From an uncultured Croceitalea sp. (GTDB lineage Bacteria > Bacteroidota > Bacteroidia > Flavobacteriales > Flavobacteriaceae): a stretch of 64,000 bases of DNA. Numbering within the stretch: position 1 is the first letter of the stretch; each line of letters begins with the position of its first letter. The position numbers and the translations under genes are program-made. The DNA is taken from assembly GCA_947503285.1 (NCBI GenBank), contig CANNDD010000002.1:682001-746000 (forward strand). Direction: 5' to 3'. Under the pieces are notes generated by a model. That model saw only the letters and a list, made by a program, of their open reading frames with translations. It was not told the DNA's origin and searched no databases. Positions 32,166-50,456 of the stretch are shown piece after piece.

Positions 32166-32690
32166 TTATTTTTTTAGAACCCCTAAATAGTCGATCCAAG
32201 GTCCAACTTCGTTTTTGTATTGTTTCGACATAACCCGTGATATTTGTGCTAAATGACCTAAATCGTGAACTGCCCAAGTCGAAATAAGTTGCTTTAAATT
32301 CACTTCTCCGAATTCTGGGTGGATTCCTGTTCGATTCAAATCGTTAAGTGTAATATTTAGGGCATTCAATTCGTTGAGATTCCTCCTTCTCAAATCCCTA
32401 AATTCATGTATTAGTCCACTAATTGTCTTTTCTTGATTTTCGGTCAGTTGGGCATATCTGTCAAATGGTTCAAAAAGTTTGTTCTCGGATTCGCTTAAAA
32501 TGGTTTTTATTCTTACCATCCAGTCTGTTTTCTCACCAAAAATTAAATGCCCAACAATATCAAATGGACTCCAAGTATTTTCACCTTCATTATTTTCAAT
32601 CCATTCTTTAGATAAACCGTTCAGTAAAGCATCTAAAACCAGAGGGGTTTTCGCTAAAATTTCCAATGATTTACTTAATTCGAAGTTCAT
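32166..32690 (-). CDS. DinB-family protein
   Basis: A 174-residue four-helix DinB-superfamily protein. Metal-type histidines occur in 'WSPFDIVGHLIFGEKTDWMV' (about residues 41-60, GHL) and 'STWAVHDLGHLAQISRVMSK' (about 136-155, HDLGH); the third is possibly in the central helix. The arrangement H...HDLxH is the family's usual metal site. It sits just outside the left end of the cassette array, on the same strand, with the IS110 remnant starting about 20 bp upstream of its ATG. No attC follows it, so it is probably chromosomal. Confidence 0.85.
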   Translation of the reverse strand: MNFELSKSLEILAKTPLVLDALLNGLSKEWIENNEGENTWSPFDIVGHLIFGEKTDWMVRIKTILSESENKLFEPFDRYAQLTENQEKTISGLIHEFRDLRRRNLNELNALNITLNDLNRTGIHPEFGEVNLKQLISTWAVHDLGHLAQISRVMSKQYKNEVGPWIDYLGVLKK

Positions 32691-32710
32691 TCTTATGTTT
32701 TTTGATGTAC

Positions 32711-32791
32711 TGTAATGAAATCATGGCCGTTTGATGAAAATTATGTGTTTAAATTATCATAGTAAGAACTTGTTGTTTACCTCAGTTCTTT
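32711..32791 (+). mobile_element. 3' remnant of an IS110-family element
   Basis: The plus-strand frame reads 'VMKSWPFDENYVFKLS' then stop, matching the end of the intact IS110 transposase at 41864 ('AIAKSGLPYDENYVSKLN'). The non-coding 3' end also matches: AAGAACTTGTT and CTCAGTTCTTTGTT occur in both. Everything further upstream in the transposase is gone. As in the intact copy, the right end directly abuts a GTT core 7-mer of an attC site. Confidence 0.8.
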
Positions 32792-33916
32792 GTTGTGTGC
32801 AGTTATTTCTTTTTTAATGTTTAAAGCGAGTTCTTCAAGCCTATCATCTATTCCTTTTGATAGTGCGTTACCTCCGAAACTGGCATTCGATAATACAGCA
32901 ATTCCAATGTTAGATTCTGGGAAAACCATAAGCCAATTCTGCATTCCCCAAATTCCACCGTGATGACGATAACATACTTCGTTCTCAATTTCAACAATAT
33001 TCCAATGATATCCGATATCAAAACCGTATTGGGTCCTGAAAAAGTTTTTATGGGATTCTTGAACTTCTGGTATTGATTCGTTCAAATGGTATTTGATATA
33101 CTTGATTAAATCCTTTGTGTTTGAATGAATGCCAGCAATTCCGCCCCAAAGATTGTTTTGAAAATGATCTTGTGGTTGCTTCTCTCCATTGTAGCCTTGT
33201 ATCAACAAAATTTTGTCGTTTGCATTGAGGACAAATTTGGTGTTTGTCATTTCGTTTGGTTCTAAAATATATTGCTCAATCAGTTTTTGATATGGAACTC
33301 CATAAGTTTTTTCAAGGATATATGCAGTTATTTCAGGTGCAGTATTTGAGTATTGGAATTCCGTTCCGGGTTTAGAGCTTATTTCTACCTGATGCAATCC
33401 ATTCCAAAATGCTTTCTTGTTTTCATCATTAGGCGGAAAATTTGGAAAACCGCCTGTATGAGTTATGATATCTTTAATTGTTATTTTTTCTCCTTCGTAT
33501 TCAAAATTAGGATATTCCTGTGGTAAATAGTTACGAATATCATCGTCAAGCGATATTTTACCATCAAGAACCGCCTTTGCAACCATTGTTCCGGTAAAGG
33601 TCTTGGTTACAGAGGCCAGTTCATAAAGCGTAGAGTCGGTTGGTGGGTTTTTCTTGTTTGGATTTTGTTCGCCAAAATGAAATGTAGTTTCTTTTCCGTT
33701 ATTGTAGAGTGCAATTGAAACGGAATGAATTCTGTCATCATCTAAAAACTCGGTAGCAAAATGTTCGACAATTTCCTCTGGGCTTTTGTTCTCGATTGAT
33801 TTATTTCGATTGCAACTGACTATTAAAAAAGTTACAAATCCAAAAAGTATTGTTTTCTGAATGTTTCTTATCAATGTTTTTCGATTTTTGGTAATTGCAC
33901 ACAACGTTTTGTGCAT
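32777..33916 (-). CDS. Serine hydrolase (beta-lactamase/class C-like), cassette gene
   Basis: A lipoprotein-like penicillin-binding/serine hydrolase of about 379 residues. Motifs: SxxK in 'YELASVTKTFTGTMVAKAVL' (SVTK, about 100), YxN in 'FQYSNTAPEITAYILEKTYG' (YSN, about 185), and HGG in 'CYRHHGGIWGMQNWLMVFPE' (about 325). The signal 'TILFGFVTFLIVSC' ends in a lipobox. The first ATG (33916) lies inside the neighbouring attC; the next usable start is TTG at 33874, giving a normal lipoprotein signal, so the start is uncertain. The last residues (KELR-stop) are encoded by the IS110 remnant, so the native C-terminus has been replaced. Confidence 0.85.
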   Translation of the reverse strand: MHKTLCAITKNRKTLIRNIQKTILFGFVTFLIVSCNRNKSIENKSPEEIVEHFATEFLDDDRIHSVSIALYNNGKETTFHFGEQNPNKKNPPTDSTLYELASVTKTFTGTMVAKAVLDGKISLDDDIRNYLPQEYPNFEYEGEKITIKDIITHTGGFPNFPPNDENKKAFWNGLHQVEISSKPGTEFQYSNTAPEITAYILEKTYGVPYQKLIEQYILEPNEMTNTKFVLNANDKILLIQGYNGEKQPQDHFQNNLWGGIAGIHSNTKDLIKYIKYHLNESIPEVQESHKNFFRTQYGFDIGYHWNIVEIENEVCYRHHGGIWGMQNWLMVFPESNIGIAVLSNASFGGNALSKGIDDRLEELALNIKKEITAHNKELR

Positions 33917-34030
33917 TGTTAGTCACGTGGTTCAGTAACTAATTTAATAAACAAGAACTTGCCAGAAAAAATTCCGAAGGAATTTTCAAGTAGGCGAGAA
34001 CCAAGCAATTGATTATACATGCTGTTGTAT
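33899..34030 (-). repeat. attC-like site, 132 bp
   Basis: Core 7-mers ACACAAC (33899) and GTTGTAT (34024) bound an imperfect palindrome whose centre holds the hairpin AAATTCC / GGAATTT. It closes the cassette of the 34039-36126 serine hydrolase. Confidence 0.75.
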
Positions 34031-40564: not shown

Positions 40565-40687
40565 ATACAACGTTGTTATGGATGGTTTGCTGCGTGTTTA
40601 TGAACTAAATTTAGCAAATACAAACCGAATAGAAAATCCGCGAGGATTTTCGTAAGCAGGTGAGGACAAGCAATTACTTATAGCCAA
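40565..40687 (-). repeat. attC-like site, left part, interrupted by IS110
   Basis: Core 7-mer ATACAAC (40565) and most of the palindrome (AAAATCC / GGATTTT hairpin, then AATTACTTATAGCCAA) are here. The right core GTTAGGC is at 41893-41899, on the other side of the IS110 element. Without the insert the two parts rejoin into a normal attC for the 41907-42464 gene. Confidence 0.7.
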
Positions 40688-40898
40688 CTTAAGTTTGGTT
40701 TTGATTAATTTATCTGTATAAACCAGAAAGAACAAAAGGGAGGATCAAGGCCAATATAGCCATGGGAACTTCAGATTCCGTCAACATTGATGGTCCCCTC
40801 TCTTTTCCATCCAAGAATTCGTTCAGTTCTGTGAGACCTAGATCTCGTTTTTAAGTTGTTGAAGCTTAGATGGAGCGTCCTTTCCAAAACATTTACTT
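40688..40898 (+). ncRNA. Candidate bridge-RNA region of the IS110 element
   Basis: IS110-group elements encode a structured bridge RNA in the non-coding left end, which pairs with target and donor DNA. This 210-bp leader is the only large non-coding part of the element. It contains TATAGCCA at 40755-40762, identical to the target flank TATAGCCA at 40679-40686 just left of the insertion point, as a left-target guide would be. GGGAAC...GTCCCC (about 40764-40797) could close the loop. The folding was not computed. Confidence 0.45.
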
Positions 40899-41864
40899 AT
40901 GAATAAAGATATGGAAATCCACGGAGTGGATATCAGTAAAGATGTGTTCGATGTAGTGGATTGCAGTGGTAACCACTTTCAATATCCCAATACCCTTAAG
41001 GGGTTCAAGGGCTATCTGAAAGTTTTGGGGAAAGACATCTTGGTCGTCATGGAAGCTACAGGATATTACCACTATTTATTGGCGCAGTTCCTTTATGGTT
41101 CAGGTATCAAGGTATCGGTCGTGAACCCTTTGTCGGTAAAACGGTTCAGACAGATGAAACTGTCCAAGGTAAAGACCGATAAGAGTGATGCCATGACCAT
41201 ACGGGATTATGGTCGTGTCAATGAAGTTCCGCTCTATGATGGCAAAGGAAAGGAGCAAGCAGAGAGTCTTCAGTTATTGGCTTTAATGGACATCTACCTA
41301 AAACAGCGCACCCAGATAAAGAACAAGCTTCACGGAGAGAAGGTTTTGGGCATACCTTCAAATGCGGTCCACCGTTCCTTGCAACGCATGTTAAAGGATT
41401 TGGACCGGGAACTGGGTTCACTCAATGAACGGTTACTCTGTTTGGTCAAAGGGTCCCAACGGGAACAACTCACCAATTTAAAGAGCATACCTGGGTTGGG
41501 GGACAGGACAGTTGCGCTGTTGATTGTTCTGACCGAGGGTTTCACCAAGTTCGAGAATGCAGGACAACTTTGTAATTATGCGGGAATCACGCCCACCATA
41601 AGACGTTCTGGAAGCAGTGTAAGGGGCAAGAGTAGGATCAGCAAGATGGGCAACAGGAAATTACGGAACCTATTGTTCTTATGTGCCTTCTCGGCCTGTA
41701 GGCACAATAAGGGATGTAGGGAGATTTATGAACGGATAACGGCAAAGGGGAAAAGCAAGAAACTGGCATTGATCGCCGTGTCGAACAAACTATTGAAACA
41801 AGCGTTTGCAATTGCAAAATCAGGTCTGCCCTATGATGAGAATTATGTGTCGAAATTGAACTAA
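40899..41864 (+). CDS. IS110-family transposase (DEDD recombinase)
   Basis: A 321-residue recombinase with the RuvC-like DEDD domain: 'MEIHGVDISKDVFDVVD' (first Asp), 'ILVVMEATGYYHYLLA' (Glu) and 'LSKVKTDKSDAMTIRDYG' (KTDKSDA, two Asp, about residue 90). The C-terminal Transposase_20 part contains 'LKSIPGLGDRTVALLIVLTE' (about 192-211, HhH-like) and the serine region 'RRSGSSVRGKSRISKMGNRK' (about 236-255). The element uses Asp/Glu metal catalysis plus a catalytic serine. The frame is intact, so it may be active. It is the only long plus-strand gene in the array. Confidence 0.93.
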   Translation: MNKDMEIHGVDISKDVFDVVDCSGNHFQYPNTLKGFKGYLKVLGKDILVVMEATGYYHYLLAQFLYGSGIKVSVVNPLSVKRFRQMKLSKVKTDKSDAMTIRDYGRVNEVPLYDGKGKEQAESLQLLALMDIYLKQRTQIKNKLHGEKVLGIPSNAVHRSLQRMLKDLDRELGSLNERLLCLVKGSQREQLTNLKSIPGLGDRTVALLIVLTEGFTKFENAGQLCNYAGITPTIRRSGSSVRGKSRISKMGNRKLRNLLFLCAFSACRHNKGCREIYERITAKGKSKKLALIAVSNKLLKQAFAIAKSGLPYDENYVSKLN

Positions 41865-41870
41865 AAGAAC

Positions 41871-41899
41871 TTGTTTTTTAACTCAGTTCTTTGTTAGGC
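41871..41899 (-). repeat. attC core GTTAGGC (41893-41899) beside the IS110 right end
   Basis: GTTAGGC is an exact match to the classical attC core GTTRRRY, complementary to GCCTAAC. It immediately follows the IS right end and forms the right boundary of the interrupted attC of the 41907-42464 cassette. Confidence 0.65.
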
Positions 41900-47274: not shown

Positions 47275-47407
47275 ACATAACGGTCTCGTATAACCGTCAG
47301 TTACGGGTTAATATGTGTTAATTTTCGGTTTAGCTCAGACGTTAGCAATTCCGAGTGGTTTCGCTAGCGGTCGAATCCGCCGTAGTTGCGGTTATACATT
47401 GTTAGCT
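47275..47407 (-). repeat. attC-like site, 133 bp
   Basis: Core 7-mers ACATAAC (47275) and GTTAGCT (47401). Close copy of the 45777 site. It closes the two-gene cassette of the quinol-monooxygenase-like and DUF6157 genes. Confidence 0.9.
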
Positions 47408-50177: not shown

Positions 50178-50456
50178 TTAAAGCTCAAAATCATCAAAAG
50201 GGTTTTTTATTTTATCCAGACTCGTAGTACTGACATGGGTGTATATCATGGTTGTTTTAGGACTATTGTGACCCAAAAGTTCTTGAATAAACCTTAAATC
50301 CGTGCCATTTTCCAATAAATGTGTCGCATGACTATGTCTTAAGATCGTGTATAAATCATTAATGGGGTATATAGCTATGACATGCAGAACTAAGATAATC
50401 AAAAACAATACTTCTACTCGGGGGTCATAAGCATTCGTAATAGCCTCATAACGCAA
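50178..50456 (-). pseudogene. Truncated tyrosine recombinase (integron-integrase-like C-terminus)
   Basis: The last ~54 codons (50178-50342) read '[20 protein letters not shown]' then '[20 protein letters not shown]' and '[14 protein letters not shown]'. This is the end of the tyrosine-recombinase catalytic domain: box II Arg (LRHS), the GH, and the nucleophile Tyr (MIYTHV). The His normally three residues before the Arg is missing at the break. The N-terminal part of the frame (to 50456, '[17 protein letters not shown]') is unrelated. The sequence resembles the integron-type integrases of Bacteroidota. Its 3' end faces the cassettes, so no active integrase is encoded here. Confidence 0.8.

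What the first reader, a model, noticed from the sequence alone, without database searches (positions are those of the whole stretch)
40688..41890. IS110 element inserted inside an attC, at the same position as a second decayed copy
Seen: the intact IS110 splits one attC next to its GTTAGGC core. At 32711-32791 the end of a related transposase (PFDENYVFKLS) with the same 3' end sequence (CTCAGTTCTTTGTT) abuts another core, GTTGTGT. Two independent copies ending at the same base of two different attC sites imply site-specific targeting. Known: an IS1111 subgroup of the IS110 family targets attC sites in Proteobacteria. Inference: a Bacteroidota lineage does likewise, but with IS110-group architecture (left leader, no IRs).
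Basis: partly seen in the sequence, partly recalled or inferred. Interest (0 to 1): 0.85.

Follow-up and report, generated by a model that had tools for sequence, protein, structure and literature searches.

The report
RNA-guided insertion sequence targeting integron attC
In marine Flavobacteria, a small mobile element seems to use its own guide RNA to insert at one exact place in the recombination sites that separate the genes of integron-like gene arrays, a habit known so far only from a different branch of the same family in Proteobacteria.

Summary
The window holds an intact 1,204-bp IS110-group element (40688-41891) between the spacer and the R'' core (GTTAGGC) of an attC-like site, and a 68-bp 3' stub of a relative (32723-32790) ending at the same base before GTTGTGT. 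Two copies would prove little. However, 42 related copies from 19 Flavobacteriaceae genomes all sit at TATAyACrN|TGTTR or a variant, in one orientation. Within a genome the elements are 97-100% identical while their flanks are mostly unrelated. Unoccupied versions of the same cassettes read straight through the join. The 5' leader folds into a bridge RNA with two guide loops. The target loop matches each copy's own left flank (416/472 positions; shuffled 313±9; 0 of 20,000) and switches along with the target (TATAGCCA, TTAACCG, TCTACC, GGTTACCA). The donor loop matches the element's own ends. So this is a bridge-RNA-guided IS110 lineage specialised on Bacteroidota attC-like sites, convergent with the proteobacterial IS1111-attC group but with IS110 architecture. 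The IS110 core dinucleotide is not clearly shared by donor and target; this is unresolved. No experiment was run.

The parts
40688..41891 (+). complete IS110-group insertion sequence (1,204 bp)
   Evidence: ends fixed by comparing copies within genomes and with empty sites
40565..40571 (-). R' side core of the interrupted attC (ATACAAC on +)
   Evidence: read from sequence; box YAAC as in the other array sites
40668..40687 (+). left target flank in attC (AAGCAATTACTTATAGCCAA); TATAGCCA is matched by the guide
41892..41899 (+). right target flank, TGTTAGGC, with the attC R'' core GTTAGGC
40690..40697 (+). TAAGTTTG, candidate -7 box (TAnnTTTG) of a promoter formed when the IS ends are abutted
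   Evidence: consensus from PMC9723704
41871..41873 (+). TTG, candidate -33 element at fixed 20-nt spacing in the abutted ends
40737..40802 (+). bridge RNA hairpin 1 (target-binding loop)
   Evidence: consensus fold with compensatory changes
40755..40762 (+). left target guide TATAGCCA
   Evidence: identical to the left flank; covariation across 26 guides
40780..40786 (+). right target guide GTCAACA (reverse complement TGTTGAC; pairs with TGTT of R'')
40824..40830 (+). left donor guide CAGTTCT (identical to the IS right end)
40848..40855 (+). right donor guide TTTTTAAG (reverse complement CTTAAAAA; pairs with the IS left end CTTAAG)
40899..41864 (+). IS110-family RNA-guided transposase (321 aa)
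   Evidence: similar to IS621 recombinase, E=2e-33
32723..32790 (+). 3' stub of a second, related IS, ending at the same base before GTTGTGT (32792-32798); left half of its attC is gone
33899..34030 (+). intact attC-like site of the same array (example)
47275..47407 (+). intact attC-like site of the same array (example; folds as a long hairpin)
50181..50342 (-). last 54 aa of the array integrase (the rest is lost)
   Evidence: 54/54 identity to the 388-aa integrase heading another array

Best explanation
This is an IS110-group (bridge-RNA) insertion sequence whose lineage is specialised on attC-like sites of flavobacterial integron-like cassette arrays. When the IS is excised as a circle, its abutted ends form a Bacteroidota-type promoter (TTG-N20-TAAGTTTG) that would drive the 5' leader RNA (inferred). 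The leader folds into two hairpins. The first carries guides for the target: the left guide matches the attC spacer and stem (TATAyACG, or TATAGCCA in this copy), and the right guide pairs with TGTT at the start of the R'' core. The second carries guides for the IS's own ends (CAGTTCT and CTTAAG). The DEDD transposase uses this RNA to recombine the circle into attC between the spacer and R'', in this window in the orientation opposite to the cassette genes and a few bases after a gene's stop codon. Insertion separates R'' from the rest of the attC hairpin and so probably freezes that site. Many copies later shrink to a 3' stub beside R''. Shown here: position, orientation relative to R'', IS ends, empty sites, RNA fold, and guide-target covariation. 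Inferred: circle, promoter activity, RNA-guided catalysis and loss of attC function.
For: Of the full-length copies in which a right end could be recognised, all but two (L013, L018) are followed by TGTT[AG]; the 42 with both ends found come from 19 genomes. Copies within a genome are 97-100% identical while their right flanks are 49-63% identical (random 60-mers ~50%). Unoccupied homologous cassettes read TATAyACrN|TGTT with no extra bases, including one in the same genome with 100% identity over the gene side. The left target guide matches its own flank at 416 of 472 positions against 313±9 shuffled (0 of 20,000), or 180 against 129±6 with one entry per distinct guide. The consensus fold has 26 pairs, 12 with compensatory changes and 10 of 780 cells non-standard. 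TTG lies at one fixed place in the right end in 23 of 25 distinct junctions (read). Exact matches to TATAYACRNTGTTR in G121 lie almost all in the two cassette arrays, 13 against 1 for the reversed control.
Against: Characterised IS110 elements share a core dinucleotide between donor and target. Here the empty target reads N|T and the abutted IS ends read T|C, so the strand-exchange core is not identified. The copies are related, so neither covariation nor fold counts independent events. L013 abuts an integrase gene instead of attC, and L018 abuts a TTTTGTAAG variant. The right target guide is nearly constant and so covaries little. No RNA, circle or transposition data exist. A -7 box that matches TAnnTTTG exactly is present in only about half of the lineages (others TAAGTTTA or TAAGTTAG).
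Confidence: 0.9

Rival explanations
1. The IS inserted once into an attC, and attC sites carrying it were then copied from cassette to cassette by the array's own recombination or by gene conversion, so the common position is inherited and not targeted.
For: This does happen for 3' stubs: L078/L079 in G027 and the pair in L091 share a whole attC with its stub, from AAC core to GTT core, on different genes. The three G021 copies share 98-100% of their left flank.
Against: In G121, G061, G157, G024 and G060 the left flanks of near-identical IS copies differ as well (49-82% identity; some G113 pairs are closer, up to 93%). Guides switch together with targets between lineages.
Confidence: 0.06
2. 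The transposase recognises the folded single-stranded attC hairpin (a structure), not a linear sequence through RNA.
For: The target lies in an imperfect palindrome, and two of four tested sites fold better than shuffles (z -2.6 and -3.8).
Against: Matches to the leader guide follow the linear target sequence, including switches. The other two sites do not fold clearly better than shuffles. Characterised IS110/IS1111 elements use RNA-guided linear targets (PMC11208160, PMC11187229).
Confidence: 0.04

Closest known systems
IS1111-attC group (ISKpn4, ISPst6, ISPa21, ISPa25; Tetu & Holmes 2008, Post & Hall 2009; seekRNA shown in PMC11187229)
   Same: Related DEDD transposase family; inserts at one end of attC sites; short guide RNA from a non-coding region with matches to both strands of the target.
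   Different: In IS1111 the RNA lies downstream of tnp and the element has subterminal inverted repeats. Here the RNA lies upstream and no such repeats were found. The host phylum is Bacteroidota, and attC sequence and array integrase differ. Whether the exact base in attC is the same was not compared.
IS621 and the bridge RNA IS110 elements (PMC11208160)
   Same: 5' leader RNA with a target-binding and a donor-binding loop, LTG/RTG/LDG/RDG layout, long left and short right end; transposase similar to IS621 over its whole length (E=2e-33).
   Different: Target is attC, not REP; no shared CT core between donor and target; candidate junction promoter is of the Bacteroidota TAnnTTTG type; leader not recognised by Rfam.
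ISEc21 (IS110 family, PMC11187229)
   Same: Upstream non-coding region, abutted-end circle with a promoter, no target duplication.
   Different: Its target is a conserved codon region in IS3-family transposases, not a recombination site.

Membership tests
IS110 family (IS110 group) | DEDD transposase with PF01548 and PF02371 | tested here: met
IS110 family (IS110 group) | structured non-coding RNA upstream of tnp with two internal-loop hairpins | tested here: met
   30 leaders, 26 pairs, 12 with compensatory changes
IS110 family (IS110 group) | left target guide covaries with the target | tested here: met
IS110 family (IS110 group) | donor guides match the IS ends | tested here: met
   LDG CAGTTCT = right end; RDG TTTTTAAG pairs with CTTAAG; nearly invariant, so no covariation test
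IS110 family (IS110 group) | core dinucleotide common to donor and target | tested here: inconclusive
   CTT at both IS ends but empty targets lack it
IS110 family (IS110 group) | circular intermediate with promoter at the junction | tested here: inconclusive
   sequence match only: TTG-N20-TAnnTT[TA]G found in 14 of 25 distinct junctions
IS1111-attC group | inserts in attC at one base and orientation | tested here: met
IS1111-attC group | subterminal inverted repeats and RNA downstream of tnp | tested here: not met
   no inverted repeat joins the two ends; 27 nt between the tnp stop codon and the right end; RNA is in the leader
integron attC / IntI | array of genes each followed by an imperfect palindrome with YAAC...GTTR cores, headed by a tyrosine recombinase | tested here: met
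   window 33.9-49.4 kb; L209-L211
integron attC / IntI | integrase over the IntI model cut-off (TIGR02249, 265 bits) | tested here: not met
   array integrases score ~205-211 bits in two stretches; 0 of 149 genomes at E<=1e-40, without a positive control

The most novel reading that the evidence does not exclude
Flavobacterial integron-like arrays, run by a non-IntI XerA-like integrase, coexist with an RNA-guided IS lineage that tracks their attC sequence by changing its guide. Decayed 3' ends of that IS become lasting parts of attC sites and are copied with them onto new cassettes or fuse neighbouring cassettes, so a bridge-RNA element helps to shape integron recombination sites.
Probability: 0.35. 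Interest if true: 0.72.

Novelty: new variant of a known kind. Interest (0 to 1): 0.58.

Why it matters
It shows that attC targeting arose in the IS110 group as well as in IS1111, in another phylum, through a readable guide RNA. attC is a good niche: many copies per genome, a few bases after a stop codon, on mobile cassettes. The 26 distinct natural guides with their targets form a ready data set for bridge-RNA rules outside IS621, including the unguided -1 base and a missing shared core. It also points to a widespread, poorly described integron-like system in Flavobacteriaceae: sequences like these attC sites were found in 260 of 397 genomes.

Tried and rejected
It was dropped because empty cassettes have no CT or CTT at the site. 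Two independent stubs as proof of targeting was rejected as an argument because stubs travel with attC. An integron with canonical IntI was tested with TIGR02249 in own and family genomes and not found over the cut-off; the arrays carry a different integrase. Rfam gave nothing for the leader. The 2008 IS1111-attC paper is not held in the library, so the base at which IS1111-attC elements insert could not be compared. My right-end pattern required TGTT after the end, so copies lacking it were listed and read separately: L013 and L018 are exceptions, L024 has lost its right end, and the G016 relatives (46-47% identical) have another right end.

Full report
WHAT IS THERE. The finding's coordinates are right to one base. 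The insertion sequence runs from 40688 (CTTAAGTTTG...) to 41891 (...CAGTTCTT), 1,204 bp. Its transposase (40899-41864, 321 aa) has the two IS110 domains, is above the NCBI IS110 cut-off and resembles IS621 recombinase over its whole length (E=2e-33). It is on the + strand in an array whose genes are on the - strand, and its right end abuts TGTTAGGC a few bases from a gene's stop codon. At 32723-32790 a 68-bp stub with the same 3' end abuts TGTTGTGT. The rest of the genome has three further 3' stubs.

THE SETTING. Most genes between about 31.7 and 50.1 kb are followed by an imperfect palindrome, typically 130-200 nt, with YAAC...GTTR cores and TATAC stems, as in integron attC sites. Similar sites occur in 260 of 397 Flavobacteriaceae genomes. 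The array ends at 50181-50342 with the last 54 residues of a 388-aa tyrosine recombinase, identical to the intact one heading an array in another genome. In L211 the integrase is followed by ten co-oriented attC-like sites between co-oriented genes. These integrases score 205-211 bits on the IntI model (cut-off 265), in two stretches with a gap, and align end to end with the shorter XerA-like model. None of 149 genomes had an IntI match at E<=1e-40, though that search had no positive control. I therefore call the arrays integron-like and the sites attC-like. The window's own array has lost most of its integrase.

IS THE POSITION TARGETED? In a family search 75 of 199 genomes had a match. With both ends found there are 42 copies in 19 genomes (L001 repeats L006, and the four G007 copies are at contig edges). 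Their left flanks end in TATAyACrN or a variant and their right flanks begin TGTT[AG]. Because my pattern asked for TGTT, I read the others by eye: L013 abuts a recombinase gene and L018 abuts TTTTGTAAG. Within G121, G061, G113, G157, G024 and G060 the elements are 97-100% identical while right flanks are at or near random identity and most left flanks differ. Homologous cassettes without the element read straight through the join, for example TATACACGGTGTTGTGCACTGG in the same genome with 100% identity across the gene side and TATACACGT|TGTT in several others. So the element is CTTAAG...CAGTTCTT, inserted between N and TGTT with nothing duplicated.

HOW IT FINDS THE SITE. The 5' leader (211 nt here) is conserved and folds into two hairpins with internal loops: 26 pairs, 12 with compensatory changes, 10 of 780 cells non-standard in 30 leaders. 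In loop 1 the eight bases before the conserved GTGA-like closing segment match the eight bases to the left of the unguided base N of that copy's own attC: 416 of 472 positions over 59 distinct copies, against 313±9 after shuffling (0 of 20,000), or 180 against 129±6 with one entry per distinct guide. Switches are telling: TATAGCCA in the window and L092, TATAGCCG in L010, TTAACCG in G007, TCTACC in G021, GGTTACCA in L032, TATACCA and CTCAAACA in the distant G016 relatives. The other side of loop 1 carries CAACA, which pairs with TGTTG. Loop 2 carries CAGTTCT (the right end) and TTTTTAAG, whose reverse complement CTTAAAAA matches the left end CTTAAG. This is the LTG/RTG/LDG/RDG layout of bridge RNAs (PMC11208160). 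When the ends are abutted, TTG lies 20 nt before TAAGTTT[GA] or TAAGTTAG; TTG is at that place in 23 of 25 distinct junctions (counted). The flavobacterial sigma-A -7 box is TAnnTTTG (PMC9723704). A junction promoter is therefore likely but unproven. Exact matches to the guide's target are rare and, in G121, cluster in the arrays.

WHAT IS UNRESOLVED. IS621 has a core dinucleotide common to donor and target. Here both IS ends show CTT, yet empty sites have no CTT, and the N left of the IS is the target's. The simplest reading is guides of 7-8 and 6 nt around one unguided base, with exchange just after that base. The chemistry cannot be settled from sequence.

THE STUBS. Most fragments retain only the last 40-110 codons and the right end, without leader. 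Only one fragment (L092) was seen with the leader and tnp start but no right end. In G027 and in G176 (the nearest relative, Croceitalea dokdonensis by its contig) pairs of stubs lie in whole attC units, AAC core to GTT core, shared by different cassettes. So some stubs are copied with attC. In the window the stub has lost its attC left half and lies about 33 bp from the next gene's start codon, so two cassettes appear fused. A deletion towards the gene side would soon hit the gene, which may explain the asymmetry (inference).

COMPARISON. The proteobacterial IS1111-attC group does the same thing with the RNA on the other side of tnp and with subterminal inverted repeats (PMC11187229; also PMC11616780). 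This element lacks both features, so it is not a member of that group but works like it. It meets the tested features of the IS110 group except the shared core and the circle, which stay open. I found no report of an IS110-group element in attC, or of attC-targeting elements in Bacteroidota, in the held library. The library is incomplete.

Noticed in passing
window 50181-50342; L209 1349-2512; L210; L211 1869-3053: Flavobacterial attC-like arrays are headed by a ~390-aa tyrosine recombinase with an extra N-terminal part, co-oriented with the cassettes, below the IntI model cut-off and close to XerA-like models; it may be an undescribed class of integron integrase.
   Followed up: partly
L078/L079 (G027) and L091 (G176): Whole attC units carrying an IS 3' stub (about 490-580 bp from AAC core to GTT core) are shared by different cassettes of one genome, so attC sites with inserts are copied as units.
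   Followed up: partly
L023 2602-3561 and L208 (G100): A different IS110-family element (30% identical tnp) is inserted inside the donor-binding loop of the attC-IS leader, which should disable its bridge RNA.
   Followed up: partly
L013 635-1498 and L024 1501-2658: The IS right end or truncated tnp abuts or is fused in frame with tyrosine recombinase genes, suggesting deletions that join the IS to the integrase.
   Followed up: no
L031, L069, L070 (G016): A sister lineage (46-47% identity) has a longer 3' end and guides TATACCA or CTCAAACA that match its own left flanks; its target was not identified.
   Followed up: no
G000:C2:152781-152794 and 154290-154303 (L212, L213): Two exact unoccupied matches to the window element's guided target (TATAGCCANTGTTG) lie 1.5 kb apart, possibly in a second array.
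   Followed up: no
window 32690-32798: The 3' stub lies about 33 bp from the next gene's start codon with no attC left half, so two cassettes appear fused.
   Followed up: no
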